A DNA stretch of 64,000 bases, taken from positions 1,488,001 to 1,552,000 of the forward strand of contig NZ_CP088294.1 in NCBI RefSeq assembly GCF_024666525.1. Direction: 5' to 3'. The notes under the pieces are model-generated. The model saw only the letters and a list, made by a program, of their open reading frames with translations, made no database searches and was not told the origin of the DNA. Below, piece by piece: positions 47,633 through 53,916 of the stretch (the stretch's first letter is position 1; each line of letters opens with the position of its first letter). This stretch comes from Pseudomonas sp. J452 (GTDB lineage Bacteria; Pseudomonadota; Gammaproteobacteria; Pseudomonadales; Pseudomonadaceae). The position numbers and the translations under genes are program-made.

Positions 47633-48106
47633 TCAGGCCTGTGGAGATTGTGTGGAGCTACGGCGCATGCCGATATGCGGGATGCCGTCGTCCAGATAGA
47701 CCTCGCCGACCGGGGCGAAGCCATAGCGGCCGTAGTAGCCCTGCAGGTGCGCCTGGGCCGATAGATAAATTGGCCGGCCCGGCCAGTGCTCGGCGCAGGC
47801 CAGCAGTGCGCGCTCCATCAGTGCATGACCGAGGCCCGTGCCGCGCGCCTCAGGCGCGACCGCCACGCGGCCGATCACCACATCACCGCCCTGCGTCGCT
47901 GGGTCGAGCAGGCGCAGATAGGCCACCAGCACATCGCCCTGCCAGGCCAGCAGGTGGCAGGTAGCACCGAGCAGGTCCTGCCCATCCACATCCAGATAAG
48001 GGCAGTTCTGCTCAACCACGAACACCTGCGCGCGCAAGGCGAGCAGGGCGTAAAGCTCGTGGGTGGAGAGGTCGGCGTGATGGCGGACAAACCAGGTGAT
48101 GGGCAT
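47633..48106 (-). CDS. elaA: ElaA-family GNAT acetyltransferase
   Basis: 157 residues from ATG 48106; the frame continues upstream but without a ribosome site. ElaA features: LYALLALRAQVFVVEQNCPYLDVDGQDL, then VIGRVAVAPEARGTGLGHALM as acetyl-CoA loop, and LSAQAHLQGYYGRYGF. Substrate unknown. It marks the left edge of the low-GC accessory segment: everything between its start and 52.9 kb looks imported. Confidence 0.87.
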   Translation of the reverse strand: MPITWFVRHHADLSTHELYALLALRAQVFVVEQNCPYLDVDGQDLLGATCHLLAWQGDVLVAYLRLLDPATQGGDVVIGRVAVAPEARGTGLGHALMERALLACAEHWPGRPIYLSAQAHLQGYYGRYGFAPVGEVYLDDGIPHIGMRRSSTQSPQA

Positions 48107-48182
48107 GAGGGTGGCTCTGTGGTGCAAGGTTGCAACGGGGTGAAGGTGCGTAGCGAACGACTTTAACCGGTTGCTGGGCAGT

Positions 48183-48704
48183 TCATAACTTCCGCGAAAG
48201 CCAGATAGCCATGGATGTACACGAAGAGACCACGGCCCAAATAAGCCAATTGGCTCTAACTGGCTCACCACCATTGTCCAGCGCGTGCTCAAGGTGGGAT
48301 TTCTCGTCTGCCTCAATCGCCTTGACGGCCAGCCAGGCCGCCTGGTCATGCTGCTCTAGAAAGTGAAGCTGCTCTTGCAGGTGCTTGTAGACGGTGCTTT
48401 CGACGGCGGCCGTGCATGACCAGATGGCTTTCGGCCCGAGCAGGGCTGTGATCAGGCCCAGGGTTGCACCGCCCAGGTTCCACAGGGGGAGGGCATAACA
48501 GGTGCGCGCATGCCTTTTTCGCAGTTCTGACTCGAATGTCCGGTAGTGCGATTTCTCATGCGCCAACATTTCTTCAAGGGCAGGAACACAGCTTGGCCAC
48601 AGGCGCCTGGAAACAGCGATTTGAGTTGTATAGATACTGATAGCGCCACGCTCTCCGGCATGGTCGACGCGCAGGATGCGTTCGACTTCTTTTTGCGTAG
48701 CCAC
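48183..48704 (-). CDS. Coq7-like diiron hydroxylase (demethoxyubiquinone hydroxylase family), accessory copy
   Basis: 173 residues from GTG 48704, with AGGAG six bases upstream. The complete Coq7 diiron set is present: E18 in VDHAGERGA, E50 and H53 in HEKSH, E102 in VESTVYKH, and E134 and H137 in ADEKSH. The C-terminus is a hydrophobic helix (WLIWAVVSSCTSMAIWLS), a possible membrane anchor. The family hydroxylates a ubiquinone precursor. Its base composition is visibly poorer in GC than its neighbours, and an attC-like site precedes it, so it was probably acquired. Pseudomonas normally has a core coq7 elsewhere, so this may be a paralogue with a different substrate. Confidence 0.8.
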   Translation of the reverse strand: MATQKEVERILRVDHAGERGAISIYTTQIAVSRRLWPSCVPALEEMLAHEKSHYRTFESELRKRHARTCYALPLWNLGGATLGLITALLGPKAIWSCTAAVESTVYKHLQEQLHFLEQHDQAAWLAVKAIEADEKSHLEHALDNGGEPVRANWLIWAVVSSCTSMAIWLSRKL

Positions 48705-48720
48705 TGAAACTCCTATAAGG

Positions 48721-48797
48721 GATTAGCGTTTTGCTTAAGGGGCCGCGGGATGTGGTCCGGAACGATCGAGGCGGGTGACTTAAACCCGTTGTTAGAG
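48721..48797 (-). other. attC-like recombination site (integron cassette remnant)
   Basis: Read on the minus strand, the site opens CTCTAAC (6 of 7 to RYYYAAC). Then come AACGGG, GTTTAAGTC, an imperfect hairpin, CCCCTTAAGC, AAAAC and finally GCTAATC (about 5 of 7 to GTTRRRY). Inner GTTTAAG and CTTAAGC can pair. Length 77 bases is close to chromosomal Pseudomonas attC sites as I recall them. The stop codon of the preceding ORF lies in CTCTAAC, a frequent cassette arrangement, and the next gene starts 17 bases beyond. No integrase is visible. Degenerate core bases keep confidence moderate. Confidence 0.5.
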
Positions 48798-48997
48798 GCG
48801 GGCAGATGCTTCCCATTGAGGCGTGTCCCGACTGCGGAGCTAATGAATGAGCTGTACATAGCTAATCACGAGAGCTACTGGGATGACATACGCGCCACTG
48901 ACTAGTGCGGCCCAGAACGCTGGACGGGGCCGGCTCCGAGACAATGCGAGCAACAACCCGGAGAGCGCCAAAGCGGCAAGTGCGAGCTACCACTCAC
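48792..48997 (-). pseudogene. Decayed small membrane-protein ORF
   Basis: From 48986 the frame reads LALAALALSGLLLALSRS, then AFWAALVSGAYVIPVALV and ISYVQLIH, clearly hydrophobic and protein-like. It meets TAG at 48840-48842, continues LRSRDTPQWEASARL and ends TAA at 48792-48794 inside the attC-like site. A start such as GTG 48997 is in another frame, so at least one frameshift and one nonsense change are needed to explain it. Two membrane helices can be inferred; the family is unknown. Confidence 0.45.
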
Positions 48998-49026
48998 TTT
49001 TTTGATGTTTGTGATAACTCGACAGG

Positions 49027-51369
49027 TTAGCCATGCGTGGTCTGCTGCAACATGCTGGCTCGGATGGTTTGCGTGTAGTCATCGGTGGCGCCGTTCTTGT
49101 CTGCCAAATCAAGAATTTCCAGTGCGCCCTCGGTGTCGCCCGCATGTAGCCGCGCCTTGGCCTCATCGTTGTAGAACACCGCACTACGGCTGCGGGCGTT
49201 GATCTGCGCCATGCGCAGGGAAGCGGCTTGGGCGGGATTGCTTATCTGCAGCGCGGTGGCGCGAATAGCTAGCGTGTAGTCACTGGCGACGCCGTACTTG
49301 TCAGCCAAATCAAGGATTTCCATTGCGCCCTTGGTGTTGCCCGCATCTAGCCGCGCCTTGGCCTCATCATTGTAGAACGCTGCATTGCGACTGCGGACGT
49401 TGATCTGTGCCATGCGCAGGGAAGCGGCCTGAGCGGGATTGCTTATCTGTAATGCCTTGGCGCGAATAGCTAACGTGTAGTCATTGGCGACGCCGTACTT
49501 GTCAGCCAAAGCAAGTATTTCCAATGCGCCCTCGGTGTCGCCTGCATCTAGCCGCGCCTTGGCCTCATCGACGTAGAACACAGTATCGCGGCTGCGGGTA
49601 TTGATCTGCGTCATGCGCAGGGAAGCGGCCTGGGCGGAGTCGCCCACTCTCTGAAGACAATCCGATTGGATTGCGCGTACGAAACCATTTATGGCTTGCG
49701 GGCAATTTTGCTCGAGCGCGGTCAGTCGCTGGAGAAAATCCCGCGCTCCAGCCTCGCCTTGCGCTAGCAGGGTGCGCCCGAGGTTCGCCCAGTATTGCGG
49801 GAAATCGCGGCGCAGCGCACAGGCTGCTTCAAAACACCTGAGCGCTTTGGCGCTTGAATTTCCTTCTTTTTTTGCCCAGCACTCGCCCAGAAAGCGTTGC
49901 ACTGTGTGATTCTCTGGATCAAGCACGGCCCGGTATTCGAGCACTTTAAGGAGCTGGTCATTGGGCGCCTTGGCTCTATGCAGATGATCCCCCAGCGTTT
50001 TCATTCGCTGCTTCGCCCACTCCAGATTTCCGGTGATCAGTTCTACCGCAATCCTGTGTATGCGGTCAGCATCGCCCGCCGAGATTAGATGATGGAACGC
50101 CTCCAGTGCGCGCTCGATATTAAGGTTTGTGGCTTTTTGGCTGGAACCAAGTTGTTGCAGCCAACACGTGGCGATCATGGCGTGCAGATGGTGTGCGTGT
50201 TGCTGTACGTCTTCACTGGTCGCCTCGGCAAATTCGGCTGCACTGTCTTCGCTGTGACCGACATAGCCGAGCTGGTGGGTGCGCAGCCAGGCGGCGATAA
50301 AGCTGTGCAGGTAGAACTTTGAATGATCGGCGCTCGCGGAAAGCAGACAGCGGCGATCCAGGCCATCCCATGCACCGAAAACTTCCAGGTTCTTCTCCAG
50401 TTGTTCCAGATGATCATGCGGGATCGCCGACCGATATAAAGCCAGAGTCTGGATCAGCTGCCGTTCCGTAGCACACAGAACATTGCGATAGAGGTCGTCT
50501 ATCAATACATCTTCGACCTTTTTCTCAAAGTCTCCGATATGGCGTTCAAGTACATTGAGAGGCGTTTCGTTGCGTCCGCGTGCAACTTCGATTAAGAGCT
50601 GGATGGCAAGCGGGTGAGCCTGATTGCCATGACCACCGCCCAGCCAGCCGTAAATGCGCTTCAGCTGACCACCGCTGTAGCGCCATTCAGCTGTTTGATC
50701 TTGCGGTGCAGCTTCAGCTAAGCATGCGCGCAGACTATCCTTGTCAAGACCGGGTATTTCGATCGGGGCAGCAAGGCTACCAAACAATCCTTTTGGTGGG
50801 CGTTCGCGCAGTTCGAGAACCCAATGCCATCGTGTTCCCAAGGCGGTTTGCAAGCCGGTCAGCAGATGGTAAATGTCGCTGCGAAATCCATCTGCGCCGA
50901 GCAAATGATGTGCTTGGTCAAGCCAAATCCAAGCCGGGCGCGGGTTCGGATAGCGGCGCTGGATTTCCGTAGTGATCGCCTCCGTATTGCCTTGTGGCGC
51001 CTTGGGCAGTTCGGTGGTATCGCCCAGTAACCTGGCAACCTGGCGAAACAAATAATCCGGGGTGATTGCCGGGTCGAGCACGATGCGGATCAGCTCGGTC
51101 CCTTGCAATGGCGCATTCTCTCCAAGCGCTTTGATGAATTCGGTCTTGCCGTTGCCGCGCATTCCATAAATCAGCACGAATGGGTAGTTATGTAATTGCT
51201 TTGCTGCTTCCTGCAGCAGCTTTTCACGCCCGTACAGTTTGATTGTGCGCGGGGCAGCCTGCGGTAAGGTTGTCCGCGTGACGAGGGCCGGACTGGGGGC
51301 AGCAACCGGGGGGGCTTTCAGCGTGCGTAGTGCAAGAGCTTCTGCTGCGGTGCCCTCATCTGCTTCCAA
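49027..51369 (-). CDS. NTPase with C-terminal tandem repeats, 3' part of a split metallophosphoesterase-NTPase gene
   Basis: 780 codons if read from TTG 51369, but that start has no ribosome site. Upstream the frame stays open and protein-like (NLRVWPRVATNKPSGW) back to the poly-G run, so it is better viewed as the continuation of the phosphoesterase gene. Walker A GMRGNGKT is at residues 69-76 and a Walker B-like AWIWLDQAH near 155-163, followed by helical regions of winged-helix and TPR character (ANLGRTLLAQGEAGARDFLQRL). The last 200 residues are three near-identical 67-residue repeats. The layout effector-NTPase-repeats recalls STAND immune sensors. Acquired by composition and context. 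Confidence 0.72.
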   Translation of the reverse strand: MEADEGTAAEALALRTLKAPPVAAPSPALVTRTTLPQAAPRTIKLYGREKLLQEAAKQLHNYPFVLIYGMRGNGKTEFIKALGENAPLQGTELIRIVLDPAITPDYLFRQVARLLGDTTELPKAPQGNTEAITTEIQRRYPNPRPAWIWLDQAHHLLGADGFRSDIYHLLTGLQTALGTRWHWVLELRERPPKGLFGSLAAPIEIPGLDKDSLRACLAEAAPQDQTAEWRYSGGQLKRIYGWLGGGHGNQAHPLAIQLLIEVARGRNETPLNVLERHIGDFEKKVEDVLIDDLYRNVLCATERQLIQTLALYRSAIPHDHLEQLEKNLEVFGAWDGLDRRCLLSASADHSKFYLHSFIAAWLRTHQLGYVGHSEDSAAEFAEATSEDVQQHAHHLHAMIATCWLQQLGSSQKATNLNIERALEAFHHLISAGDADRIHRIAVELITGNLEWAKQRMKTLGDHLHRAKAPNDQLLKVLEYRAVLDPENHTVQRFLGECWAKKEGNSSAKALRCFEAACALRRDFPQYWANLGRTLLAQGEAGARDFLQRLTALEQNCPQAINGFVRAIQSDCLQRVGDSAQAASLRMTQINTRSRDTVFYVDEAKARLDAGDTEGALEILALADKYGVANDYTLAIRAKALQISNPAQAASLRMAQINVRSRNAAFYNDEAKARLDAGNTKGAMEILDLADKYGVASDYTLAIRATALQISNPAQAASLRMAQINARSRSAVFYNDEAKARLHAGDTEGALEILDLADKNGATDDYTQTIRASMLQQTTHG
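49035..49637 (-). repeat. Three tandem 201-bp units encoding the NTPase C-terminal repeats
   Basis: Equivalent bases recur at 49160, 49361 and 49562, exactly 201 bp apart. Each unit encodes 67 residues around ASLRMAQIN, NDEAKARLDAG and EILDLADKYG. DNA identity between units is very high, so the duplication is recent or kept uniform. Confidence 0.9.
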
Positions 51370-52400
51370 ATGGCAGTTTTGGTTGTCGGAAACAAACCGC
51401 CAGCCGCTGGGCTTGTTGGTGGCGACACGCGGCCAGACTCTGAGGTTGGCCCCCCCCCCTGTGCAAACTCAATCTTGCCAACGGCGTATCCGTGGCTGCG
51501 CATCAGCGTTGGCGGGTCACCGAACTTTTCCATACCGAAAACAGAGCTGCCTTGGCACAAGCGGCTGGCGTGGGGGCTTCCGCCGTTGCGGATGTACTGG
51601 AGAGAGTGTTCATGCATGTGCCCAAACAGATGAAGAGCGAAGCGCCCGGCGGGTGAAATTTCACTATCACCATGTGTTCGGGCGGCAGGCGTCAGCCAGT
51701 CCGGGCCCTGATGGGTCAGTAACAAGCATAGCGAATGGCGCTTCAGCCAATCGTCCACCGCGCCACCACACACTGTGCTTAATTGCTGCACATTCCAGAT
51801 CAGCTTGCCTTTAAAATTGCCGGCCTTTAGCTGCAGGAACGCGGTGTTCAGGCCGATGATGCCGATGCGGTGTGGGCCGCGTTCCAGTGTAAACGCAAAA
51901 TCTCCGGGGAGTTCCCCTGCGATTAACTCCTTGGGGCGATATGGTGAGGTACTCCACCATTGCGTGTATCCGGCGAATGCATCGTCAATGACCTTGCGAT
52001 AACCGTTCGCTGAATTGGCCCAGAACTTCTCTGCGATAGCGCTAAAACCGTGGTCAGCCAAGAGCGTATCCGCAGCCGGGTTGTCGGCCTTTGGATCGGG
52101 GCGACACAAGTCATGATTGCCAGGCACGGCTAATAATCTGGCATCGCCTGAGCCAAGTTCGGTGAGCTTCTCCCAAAGCCTGTCCAGAACTTCCTTCTGC
52201 AGCTCCTCGAACTCTTTCGACTTGCCTTGTTGAACCAGGTCGCCGGTAAAGAGCACGGTATCCCAGGGGCCTGTTTTTTCGTGCAGATTCGCCAGGTCGT
52301 CGAGAAATGGCTGGCGTAGGTTCGGCCAGAGATTTTTTTGCCCCTGAAGGCCGAAATGAAAGTCTGTGAGATGGAGCCATGAGAAGGAGAGAGTTGTCAT
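51318..52400 (-). CDS. Calcineurin-like metallophosphoesterase, 5' part of the split gene
   Basis: 360 codons. All metal-binding motifs are intact: D13 and H15 in LTDFHFG, D54 in FTGDLV, GNHD at 94-97, the later His in LLTHQG and GHMHEH near the domain end. This part should be an active phosphodiesterase, phosphatase or nuclease. After the run of ten G (51450-51459) the frame reads a Pro/Ser-rich tail and stops at 51318, overlapping the NTPase frame by 52 bases. One added G (or two fewer) would join it to the NTPase, giving one protein of roughly 1100 residues. AT-rich DNA upstream holds the promoter. Confidence 0.78.
   Translation of the reverse strand: MTTLSFSWLHLTDFHFGLQGQKNLWPNLRQPFLDDLANLHEKTGPWDTVLFTGDLVQQGKSKEFEELQKEVLDRLWEKLTELGSGDARLLAVPGNHDLCRPDPKADNPAADTLLADHGFSAIAEKFWANSANGYRKVIDDAFAGYTQWWSTSPYRPKELIAGELPGDFAFTLERGPHRIGIIGLNTAFLQLKAGNFKGKLIWNVQQLSTVCGGAVDDWLKRHSLCLLLTHQGPDWLTPAARTHGDSEISPAGRFALHLFGHMHEHSLQYIRNGGSPHASRLCQGSSVFGMEKFGDPPTLMRSHGYAVGKIEFAQGGGPTSESGRVSPPTSPAAGGLFPTTKTAIWKQMRAPQQKLLHYAR
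51450..51459 (-). other. Homopolymeric tract of ten G in the coding strand
   Basis: Ten consecutive G on the minus strand lie at the junction where the phosphoesterase and NTPase frames diverge. Arithmetic of the two frames shows that 8 or 11 G would fuse them. It is a classic site for slippage during replication, transcription or translation, and also for sequencing error. Confidence 0.85.
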
Positions 52401-52948
52401 AATTGTCCGCTGCTAACTCAAAAAGGTATGCTCGATAAAAATTAAAAGGCATGTAAGCAATAAGCCCAGATGGCTTGTCTTTCTAAAAACCCAATATAAC
52501 CAACTTCCGCAAATAAATACCCCTTGTTTTCCCTGGTTAAACCTGCCAGGGGTGCTGGGTAAAGTCTATAGAGTGATGACTCAAAACTCTCGTAATTACA
52601 CCCGGGTGGAAGCTAGGCCAAGCATGATTTATATATTTAAATGGCAGTCAGTAAAGTTTTCCTAACGGTAAATATGCGCCATAAGTTTCGTTATATTTTG
52701 CGCCGTTATTGTTGGTTACTATTCCTTGCCAGACCTTGATCGTTTTCTGTCTAGCGGCTGCCATAGTTAATGCGAAAGCCTTGGGAGAAGCCGCGACGGG
52801 ATCAGCGCCCTCGGCTCCCGAGCATCGCCCCGAGCAATTCAGCCGAAGCTACTGACTCCCCCCTGACCTGTCCACCGCGTAACGCTGTGCCTTTGTCTCA
52901 CCACCCGCCGAGCGCCACCTACACTGCAACGGAAGTGCGCGGAGGTGT
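52401..52948. other. Low-GC intergenic region at the right edge of the accessory segment
   Basis: About 550 bases without a credible gene. The left two thirds are conspicuously AT-rich (for example around 52615-52720), unlike the flanks, and must include the promoter of the metallophosphoesterase gene. Two small hairpins are visible: AAGCC/GGCTT near 52468-52482 and CCCTGG/CCAGGG at 52531-52551. GC rises again after about 52780, which I take as the boundary to native sequence. Confidence 0.6.
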
Positions 52949-53809
52949 GTGTTGGTCAATGAGACGTCCGATTATTCGATCTACCGCCGGGTGGTGTCGC
53001 AGTTGATGCAGGGTCAGGAGCAGTTGCCCAGCCTGCCGACCATTACCCTGGATATTCGCCGGGCCCTGAGTGACGAGCGGATGACGGTGCCGGCGCTGGT
53101 GCGCCTGGTCAGCCGTGATCCGGCGTTGAGTGCGATTCTGATGAAGCATGCTTCCTGTGCGCTGTACCGGCATGCGCTGGTGCCCAAGACGCTGCATGAG
53201 GTGATCACCCTGCTCGGCATGGCCGAGGTGGATCGCATCACCATGGTGCACAGCATTCGCAGCCTGTTCACCCTGCACAGCGCGGCGCACAAGCGGTTGT
53301 TCGTCGAGGTGTGGGAGCGCCTGGTGCTCAAGGCCAGCACCAGTGCCATGCTCGCCCGCCTGCTCGGCCATGTGGCGCCGGAGCATGCCTTGCTGGCCAG
53401 CCTGCTCAGCGAGGTGGGCACCCTGGCAGTGTTGTCGGCGTTCAAGGATGAGGCGCAGATTCCTTCCGGCGAGCTGTATTACAAACTGTGCCGCGAGTAC
53501 AGCAAGTCGCTCGGGGTGATCGTGCTGAAGAAGTGGGCGGTGGACGACGAGTACATCGGGGTGATCCGCAACGCCGGCAACTGGAGTCTGTGTGAAAGCC
53601 GCGAGCTGGGGCTGATCGATCTGGTCAACCTGGCGCTGTTCCATGCGATCAAGGAGCAGAACCCGCAAGCCGAGCTGCCGCTGCTGGTGGAGCTGGCGGC
53701 TTACCACAAGCTGTTGCCGCCGCTGAATTTCGTCAGTGCCAATGGCGAACTGGAGCTGGTGCTCAATCACCAGGCGGATATCCATGCGATTGCTGCCACG
53801 CTGCGCTGA
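52949..53809 (+). CDS. HDOD-domain signalling protein
   Basis: 286 residues. GTG 52949 follows GGAGG closely; TTG 52952 would give better spacing. The HDOD domain covers about 15-215: LPSLPTITLDIRRALSDERMTVPALVRLVSRDPALSAILMKHA, then TLHEVITLLGMAEVDRI and GHVAPEHALLASLLSEVGTLAVL. HDOD proteins are HD-related but usually non-catalytic and act in signalling or motility control. No partner is adjacent. First native gene after the accessory segment. Confidence 0.82.
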   Translation: MLVNETSDYSIYRRVVSQLMQGQEQLPSLPTITLDIRRALSDERMTVPALVRLVSRDPALSAILMKHASCALYRHALVPKTLHEVITLLGMAEVDRITMVHSIRSLFTLHSAAHKRLFVEVWERLVLKASTSAMLARLLGHVAPEHALLASLLSEVGTLAVLSAFKDEAQIPSGELYYKLCREYSKSLGVIVLKKWAVDDEYIGVIRNAGNWSLCESRELGLIDLVNLALFHAIKEQNPQAELPLLVELAAYHKLLPPLNFVSANGELELVLNHQADIHAIAATLR

Positions 53810-53916
53810 GTGGCCGGATTGGCAGCCCTGGCCGTGATCGCTGGCACGCTAGGCCACGGTTTGGCGTGCGCTGAGCTGCTATGGTCGAGCCTTCGCCGCC
53901 TACCGTGAGACCGCGC

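What the first reader, a model, noticed from the sequence alone, without database searches (positions are those of the whole stretch)
49027..52400. Candidate antiviral sensor: metallophosphoesterase joined to a repeat-bearing NTPase
Two adjacent frames encode an intact calcineurin-like phosphoesterase and an NTPase followed by helical repeats. Frame arithmetic and the protein-like sequence in the overlap indicate one ancestral protein of about 1100 residues: effector, NTPase switch, repeat sensor. That order is the logic of STAND-type immune proteins. It sits in a lower-GC accessory segment beside cassette-like DNA. I do not recall this exact effector-NTPase pairing as a characterised defence system.
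Basis: partly seen in the sequence, partly recalled or inferred. Interest (0 to 1): 0.82.

Follow-up and report, generated by a model that had tools for sequence, protein, structure and literature searches.

The report
Split phosphoesterase–STAND immune sensor gene
This is a gene for a probable one-protein bacterial virus alarm (a phosphoesterase weapon, an ATP switch and a repeat sensor) that sits in an integron-cassette remnant and is cut in two at a run of ten Gs; its relatives keep swapping the weapon while keeping the switch and sensor.

Summary
Two minus-strand frames (51318-52400, 49027-51369) are pieces of one gene. The break falls on a ten-G tract (51450-51459), the only homopolymer of 8 or more in the window. 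Of 119 listed homologues, 111 have more than 60 residues before the NTPase; in 83 these belong to metallophosphoesterase (MPE) clusters. The switch is nSTAND6 (1.5e-54); the C-terminus is three 67-residue repeats. DS-8 (MPE-NACHT), published in 2026, has the same logic, so this is a new variant, not a new kind. New here: integron-cassette anatomy, with attC relics after this gene and after a second COQ7 copy, a full-length integron integrase elsewhere in the genome, and an empty site in one relative. Of seven G/C runs of 10 or more in the genome, four lie in or at defence-type genes, a lead towards poly-G switching of immunity. Whether this copy is switched off, dead or mis-sequenced is undecided.

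The parts
51318..52400 (-). metallophosphoesterase (MPE) effector half; residues 1-314 in the homologous frame, then an out-of-frame tail after the G tract
   Evidence: PF00149 7.8e-11; the five motif patterns (DxH, GDxx, GNHD, H, GHxH; names recalled) are present
51450..51459 (-). G10 tract on the gene strand, the point of the frame break
   Evidence: only homopolymer of 8 or more in the window; one of 7 G/C runs of 10 or more in the genome, merged by me from the overlapping matches
49027..51369 (-). nSTAND6 NTPase + helical-repeat half (the open frame reaches to about 51468; the first start codon in it is a TTG)
50797..51237 (-). nSTAND6 NTPase domain, Walker A GMRGNGKT, Walker B region WIWLD
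   Evidence: 187.2 bits; motif columns across A1
49045..49647 (-). three tandem 201-bp (67-aa) repeats, putative sensor
48724..48796 (-). eroded attC site downstream of the NTPase stop codon, same orientation as the gene
   Evidence: sequence model built from five attC sites of the genome's own integron array: 40.2 bits, E 1.5e-11 in the window, 1.2e-9 genome-wide
48183..48704 (-). second, short COQ7 copy, probable neighbouring cassette gene
   Evidence: PF03232 5.9e-47; another COQ7 at C1:564953-565429
48145..48179 (-). half attC site directly after the COQ7 stop
   Evidence: 17.6 bits, E 1.7e-4 in the window but 0.0126 genome-wide
48083..53862 (.). accessory segment (limits as aligned) absent from G469, where the GNAT and DJ-1/PfpI genes are neighbours; it also holds the HDOD gene 52949-53809 (+)

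Best explanation
A single-protein STAND immune receptor of a distinct kind: MPE effector - nSTAND6 NTPase - 67-residue helical-repeat array. Likely mechanism: the repeat array binds a phage molecule (inferred); nSTAND6 then binds ATP and oligomerises (inferred from STAND proteins); the clustered MPE domains become an active metal-dependent phosphodiesterase that destroys a nucleotide or nucleic acid and stops growth or phage replication (inferred from the intact catalytic motifs, from exchange with TIR and nucleoside-phosphorylase effectors, and from DS-8). In this genome the gene probably arrived as an integron cassette (shown: attC relics, an integrase elsewhere in the genome, an empty site in a relative; the capture itself is inferred). 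As sequenced it is interrupted at a G10 tract and cannot make the full-length protein by standard reading.
For: nSTAND6 1.5e-54. Of 119 listed homologues 111 have more than 60 residues before the NTPase, 83 of these in MPE clusters. At least 14 effector-label changes on the tree of 112 cores, including PNP and MPE-B on closely related cores. The window's MPE is 63% identical to that of an NB-ARC protein (L008) but 26% to the MPE of P0024, whose NTPase-repeat part is 58% identical. The MPE-A type occurs with NB-ARC/AAA_16, nSTAND6, nSTAND1 plus ankyrin, and PF25199 domains. Repeats within the window protein and within P0002 are mostly more alike than between the two. Defence genes lie beside some homologues. 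DS-8 needs both its MPE and its NTPase residues for defence.
Against: No phage assay of an nSTAND6 protein was found in the searches made, and no structure could be made. Many neighbours of homologues are not defence genes, and the window's own neighbours are COQ7, GNAT and HDOD; PADLOC gave nothing for COQ7. The copy is interrupted, so present function in this strain is unproven. The ligand and the MPE substrate are unknown. PADLOC's only hit on the NTPase half is mad8 at 9.9e-7. Over 101 proteins with two or more repeats the median repeat identity within a protein is only modestly above that between proteins (0.48 against 0.40).
Confidence: 0.75

Rival explanations
1. The G10 tract is a contingency switch: replication slippage turns the receptor on and off, and the genome caught the OFF phase (poly-G phase variation of immunity).
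For: Seven distinct G/C runs of 10 or more in 4.86 Mb against 3 of exactly 9 and 11 of exactly 8. Four of the 7 lie in or at defence-type genes: this gene, a type I specificity/methyltransferase junction, a KAP-NTPase protein with a PifA match (7e-17), and a protein with weak PLD/RE_NgoFVII matches. Both halves of this gene remain well conserved.
Against: I had no second strain or read data that could show a different tract length. Two of the four tracts are about 5 kb apart, so only three loci are independent. Not every tract breaks a frame: two lie inside one open frame. Three of the seven lie elsewhere. Slippage is inferred.
Confidence: 0.35
2. The interruption is a sequencing or assembly error at a homopolymer; the living strain has an intact fused gene.
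For: Homopolymer runs are a classic indel site (general knowledge). Neither half shows another break, and the NTPase-repeat half is 77% identical to that of an intact homologue.
Against: The tract itself stands where the homologues printed have no run of glycines, so a long G tract is probably real even if its counted length is not.
Confidence: 0.3
3. A decaying pseudogene stranded in a dead cassette cluster.
For: Its attC relics are eroded (40.2 and 17.6 bits against 83-93 for the top 14 sites); the gene is interrupted; the only integron-integrase match over the cut-off is at C1:4536595, about 3 Mb away.
Against: Only one lesion in 3.4 kb; the MPE and Walker motifs are intact.
Confidence: 0.3
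4. Two separate functional genes (MPE; NTPase-repeat) acting as a two-protein system.
For: Two ORFs exist as sequenced.
Against: 111 of 119 listed homologues have more than 60 residues before the NTPase on the same chain. The first start codon in the NTPase frame is a TTG, and its first ATG lies inside the NTPase domain (sequence).
Confidence: 0.04
5. A housekeeping or signalling regulator (phosphoesterase signalling) not concerned with phages.
For: MPE families include cyclic-nucleotide phosphodiesterases (recalled); some homologues lie among metabolic genes.
Against: Very patchy: a match over 40 bits only in the own genome, among 57 relatives and among 398 phylum genomes, own included both times. 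Effector exchange with TIR and PNP is typical of conflict systems (PMC8195603, passages).
Confidence: 0.08

Closest known systems
DS-8 (DefensePredictor; NCBIfam NF053861 DS8_antiphage)
   Same: Single protein, N-terminal metallophosphatase plus NACHT NTPase; mutants of both lose phage defence (PMC13092281, passages read). The window's MPE matches the profile's N-terminus (4.2e-11, positions 1-237 of 994).
   Different: 41.3 bits against a cut-off of 790; the window's NTPase half gave no match to the profile; nSTAND6 and the 67-residue repeats are different modules.
DS-9A anti-phage phosphoesterase (NCBIfam NF053862)
   Same: Metallophosphatase whose catalytic residues are needed for defence; the window's MPE matches it at 2.7e-11.
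   Different: 43 bits against a cut-off of 420; DS-9 is a two-gene system with a HAD phosphatase.
MPE-A - NB-ARC/AAA_16 - TPR proteins (L004, L008, L010 by Pfam; L005, L009, L012, L016 by eye; P0121 and others)
   Same: MPE domain 63% identical to the window's (L008); same order of effector, NTPase, TPR.
   Different: NTPase is NB-ARC/AAA_16, not nSTAND6; the TPRs differ. No literature search was made for this family itself.
nSTAND6 proteins with TIR or nucleoside-phosphorylase effectors (P0081, P0085, P0087, P0088, P0095 and others)
   Same: Same nSTAND6-repeat core; these five are 41-45% identical to the window's NTPase half.
   Different: Other effector; no MPE.
Avs / bNACHT antiviral STANDs
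   Same: Effector-STAND-sensor logic (recalled; only the start of an Avs5 abstract was seen).
   Different: No Avs model matched either half at E 0.1.
Integron-borne defence cassettes (Vibrio, Xanthomonas)
   Same: A defence-type gene carried as a cassette; seen only through passages and the reference list of PMC12444791.
   Different: Here a 3.4-kb STAND receptor in a two-gene, integrase-less cluster with degraded attC sites.

Membership tests
nSTAND6 (PF25201) | full-length match over the curated cut-off (27.7 bits) | tested here: met
   184.5 bits, profile 1-148 of 148
nSTAND6 (PF25201) | Walker A and B motifs | tested here: met
   GMRGNGKT and WIWLD in the window; Walker A conserved across A1, Walker B region more variable
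Calcineurin-like phosphoesterase (PF00149) | profile match over the cut-off | tested here: met
   43.2 bits against 21.5
Calcineurin-like phosphoesterase (PF00149) | five metal-site motif patterns (recalled) | tested here: met
   all five in the window, in 15 of 15 MPE-A rows, each in 63 or 64 of 68 MPE-B rows
DS-8 | NF053861 score over 790 bits | tested here: not met
   41.3 bits for the MPE half, no match listed for the NTPase half
DS-8 | NACHT NTPase domain | tested here: not met
   no NACHT among the 14 Pfam matches of the NTPase half at E 0.1
DS-8 | anti-phage activity lost on MPE or NTPase mutation | not testable with these tools
   needs a plaque assay
DS-9A | NF053862 score over 420 bits | tested here: not met
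   43 bits
Avs | match to a PADLOC Avs model | tested here: not met
   only mad8 (NTPase half) and PDC-S60, Effector, PDC-S10 (MPE half) matched at E 0.1
STAND immune receptor (class) | exchangeable N-terminal effectors on a conserved NTPase-repeat core | tested here: met
   at least 14 changes among 7 label classes (one of them 'unassigned') on a quick tree of 112 rows
STAND immune receptor (class) | ligand-driven ATP-dependent oligomerisation | not testable with these tools
   structure prediction switched off
Integron gene cassette | attC downstream of the gene in the same orientation | tested here: met
   48724-48796 (-), E 1.5e-11
Integron gene cassette | attC folds into the bulged hairpin | tested here: inconclusive
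   + strand of 48700-48810 folded no better than shuffles (z 0.63); the - strand was not folded
Integron gene cassette | integron integrase in the genome | tested here: met
   TIGR02249 524.9 bits, model 1-315 of 315, no stop, at C1:4536595-4537539, about 3 Mb away

The most novel reading that the evidence does not exclude
Poly-G contingency tracts make part of this bacterium's immune repertoire phase-variable: a cassette-borne MPE-nSTAND6 receptor, a type I restriction-modification locus, a KAP-NTPase protein and a PLD-type nuclease each carry one of the few long G tracts in the genome, so individual cells would run different combinations of defences.
Probability: 0.25. Interest if true: 0.78.

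Novelty: new variant of a known kind. Interest (0 to 1): 0.58.

Why it matters
If right, nSTAND6 proteins are a modular family of one-protein immune receptors in which nature has already made the swap experiment: one type of sensor core with MPE, TIR, nucleoside phosphorylase or cyclase. That makes the unknown substrate of MPE effectors (left open for DS-8) testable by comparing closely related cores that carry different effectors. The cassette setting links STAND receptors to integrons as mobile immune libraries, and the G tracts raise a testable idea of bet-hedging in bacterial immunity.

Tried and rejected
It was replaced by a profile search of PDB sequences with 40 fused homologues: 45 distinct sequences, TPR proteins (many designed) and, weakly and only over the first hundred positions, Mre11/SbcD-type nucleases (7.9e-5 to 5.2e-4). 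Single-half PDB searches found nothing at E 0.1. The 365-aa ORF next to the L003 gene matched nothing in the PDB.

The single-sequence scan of genome contigs found no relatives; the alignment A2 gave 151 relatives, the best 80 kept. tblastn of P0003: plasmids, 3 records, MPE part only; phages, no match.

attC sites near homologues elsewhere: none at E 1 in 20 loci, 17 of them from genome contigs and 3 from same-genus genomes; the model is specific to this genome's attC type, so this is weak evidence. A home-made attC finder missed the window site. The hairpin test was negative. The Rfam scan of the window found nothing.

Two-gene system ranked low: the first ATG of the NTPase frame lies inside the domain and the fused form is the rule. 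Programmed frameshifting or transcript slippage was considered but not tested.

Literature: 'nSTAND6' is in 0 held papers; MPE/STAND queries returned 0, 31, 7 and 54 papers, of which I saw 0, 20, 7 and 12 as listings, and none appeared to describe MPE-nSTAND6. A query on poly-G phase variation of defence systems returned 6 papers, seen only as listings; none appeared to report this. Two papers tried by id were not held.
Full report
WHAT IS THERE. Two overlapping minus-strand frames encode a 360-aa metallophosphoesterase (MPE; 51318-52400) and a 780-aa NTPase-repeat protein (49027-51369). Pfam gives Metallophos 7.8e-11 and nSTAND6 1.5e-54 over the whole 148-position profile, with TPR matches below their cut-offs. 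The MPE frame matches homologues up to GKIEFAQ; the other frame matches them from ANLRVWP onward. Between the two lies a run of ten Gs on the gene strand (51450-51459), the only homopolymer of 8 or more in 64 kb. Homologues such as P0002 (1208 aa) and P0003 (1130 aa) are single chains across this point. The first start codon in the NTPase frame is a TTG and its first ATG lies inside the NTPase domain (sequence). This is one gene, interrupted.

FUSED IS THE RULE. Of 171 homologues of the NTPase half at E 1e-3 or better (8000 candidates scored), 120 were listed and all 120 were aligned; one of them is the window's own protein. Of the other 119, 111 have more than 60 residues before the NTPase: 83 in MPE clusters (68 of type B, 15 of type A), 14 nucleoside phosphorylase (PNP), 10 TIR, 1 cyclase, 1 DUF4062 and 2 unassigned. 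The classes are BLAST clusters that I named after the Pfam domains, and a few members are N-terminally short. Eight have 60 residues or fewer there; I did not check whether these are fragments.

EFFECTOR EXCHANGE. A tree of 112 cores, with the effector part left out, needs at least 14 changes among 7 label classes (one of them 'unassigned'); 6 is the minimum and shuffles average 41.7 (quick method, 29 of 109 inner branches weak, long-branch warnings for some rows). Examples: MPE-B P0100 and P0115 lie inside a PNP clade on end branches of 0.09 and 0.15 changes per column; TIR P0081 groups with PNP P0087; TIR P0088 groups with PNP P0098. The converse also holds. The window's MPE is 63% identical to that of L008, an NB-ARC/AAA_16-TPR protein, but 26% to that of P0024, whose NTPase-repeat part is 58% identical. 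In a search with the MPE-A domain of L008 (1016 proteins at E 1e-30 or better, 120 listed), by my reading of the Pfam column 7 of the 120 carry nSTAND6, 2 nSTAND1 with ankyrin repeats, 2 PF25199 (name not looked up), 1 no second Pfam domain, and the other 108 AAA_16 and/or NB-ARC. Exchangeable effectors on a conserved switch and sensor are a hallmark of conflict systems; calcineurin-type effectors on STAND-FGS and TRADD-N proteins are described in PMC8195603 (passages only).

SENSOR. The C-terminus is an array of 67-residue units. Over the 120 proteins, window included, the number of units found is 0 in 3, 1 in 16, 2 in 25, 3 in 37, 4 in 32, 5 in 6 and 6 in 1 (truncated proteins included). Window repeats are 70-82% identical to each other and P0002 repeats 84-94%, while repeats compared between the two are 64-73%, although their NTPase-repeat halves are 77% identical overall. 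Against P0006 the between-protein values are 52-63%. Across 101 proteins with two or more full repeats the contrast is modest: median 0.48 within, 0.40 between. Some arrays thus look renewed by recent duplication, as expected of a fast-evolving sensor (inference).

CATALYSIS. Patterns for the five MPE metal-site motifs are present in the window, in 15 of 15 type A rows, and each in 63 or 64 of 68 type B rows. Walker A is GMRGNGKT. A profile of 40 fused homologues matches TPR structures and, weakly, Mre11/SbcD-type nucleases in the PDB, so a nuclease and a nucleotide phosphodiesterase are both open.

RARITY AND CONTEXT. A match over 40 bits occurs in the own genome only: 187.2 bits against a next best of 33.9 among 57 relatives (3 of 57 over the cut-off, own included) and 36.9 among 398 phylum genomes (14 of 398 over the cut-off, own included; at most 9 first-look candidates per genome scored). 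For 15 loci that hold nSTAND6 or MPE-A STAND proteins, chosen from the 80, 133 neighbouring ORFs within 8 kb were scanned against PADLOC at E 1e-10. They include LmuA 5e-131, LmuB 8.7e-179, LmuC 1.5e-52, mad6 1.7e-50, mad3 8.6e-31, PDC-S60 4.4e-45 and PD-T4-6 (48 families, 25 shown). Of ten of these ORFs scanned singly, two matched: a CARF-type model at 1.7e-15 in L014 and TIR-type models at about 5e-11 in L005. 142 ORFs around relatives' GNAT genes gave none; these control loci are shorter and from one genus, so the control is rough. In Desulfobulbus (L003) the fused gene is followed by ORFs of 365, 164 and 611 aa, the last related to a DUF3732 protein (9hqu, 5.4e-8), the first without a PDB match. 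From size and order I infer that this is the Lamassu operon seen; I did not assign the PADLOC hits to loci directly. Many other neighbours are housekeeping genes.

HOW IT GOT HERE. In G469 the GNAT and DJ-1/PfpI genes that flank the window's segment are neighbours, and 48083-53862 is absent; in G013 a GGDEF gene lies between them. None of 29 other same-genus GNAT loci (L151-L179, about 1.5 kb each side) showed a match to COQ7, the MPE or the NTPase half. The genome holds an integron integrase (524.9 bits, C1:4536595-4537539) beside five attC sites found as repeats. A sequence-only model of those five finds, in the window, 48724-48796 (-) at 1.5e-11 and a half site 48145-48179 (-) at 1.7e-4. 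Genome-wide there are 47 matches at E 3.3e-5 or better, the five model sites included, in several clusters (150 of 857 first-look candidates were scored). The half site is only E 0.0126 in that search. The two window sites lie downstream of the NTPase stop and of the COQ7 stop, in gene orientation: gene-attC-gene-attC. COQ7 here is a second copy (other copy C1:564953). I conclude that the MPE-nSTAND6 gene was probably a cassette in an integrase-less cluster. No attC was found on the HDOD side, and the + strand of the site did not fold better than shuffles; the sites are eroded.

THE G TRACT. Genome-wide I merge the listing to 7 distinct G/C runs of 10 or more, of 18, 10, 10, 10, 11, 11 and 29 bases, with 3 of exactly 9 and 11 of exactly 8. 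Besides this gene, one lies where a type I specificity-like frame ends and a type I methyltransferase frame begins, one inside a protein with YCF48-like repeats and a KAP NTPase (PADLOC PifA 7e-17), and one inside a frame with weak PLD/RE_NgoFVII matches (5.3e-6; PADLOC at best 1.3e-6). The other three lie in or near non-defence or unassigned sequence (18 G; 11 C next to pqiA; 29 G). For the 14 shorter runs I checked 10 open frames (all three 9-base runs, 7 of the eleven 8-base runs) by Pfam only: 6 matched something and none is an obvious defence domain, though one is a ThiF protein. The numbers are small and two of the four tracts share one region, so this is a lead, not a result.

COMPARISON. 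DS-8 is the closest tested system: one protein, MPE plus NACHT, with both needed for defence and an unknown substrate (PMC13092281, passages). The window protein fails the DS-8 membership test (41.3 bits against 790) and that of DS-9A (43 against 420) but works by the same apparent logic as DS-8. It is not an Avs by PADLOC. The held library has no paper with the word nSTAND6.

VERDICT.

Noticed in passing
G000:C1:15098-15115, 1539450-1539459, 3505675-3505684, 3510872-3510881, 3761093-3761103, 4027282-4027292, 4759225-4759253 (six of them in L218-L223): Seven long G/C runs in the genome; four lie in or at defence-type genes (this gene, type I RM junction, KAP-NTPase protein, weak PLD/RE_NgoFVII-like nuclease).
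   Followed up: partly
G000:C1:3577772-3591141; 4299436-4304408; 3260226-3262241; 4729952-4732031; 2173695-2174452: Several clusters of attC matches away from the integrase-linked array at 4538175-4540420.
   Followed up: no
window:48183-48704: Short second COQ7 copy that looks like an integron cassette gene; the other copy lies at C1:564953-565429.
   Followed up: partly
window:52949-53809: HDOD gene inside the accessory segment; a 68% identical protein in 1 of the other 58 same-genus genomes searched, G014.
   Followed up: partly
L003:636-7885 (Desulfobulbus sp. MAG): Fused MPE-nSTAND6 gene directly followed by a probable Lamassu operon (inferred).
   Followed up: partly
L004, L005, L008, L009, L010, L012, L016: MPE-A effector fused to an NB-ARC/AAA_16-type NTPase: a large related group (1016 proteins with an MPE-A-like domain, of all architectures, at E 1e-30 or better).
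   Followed up: partly
P0039, P0116, P0018: nSTAND6 proteins with a nucleotide-cyclase domain, a DUF4062-type domain, or an unassigned N-terminus.
   Followed up: no
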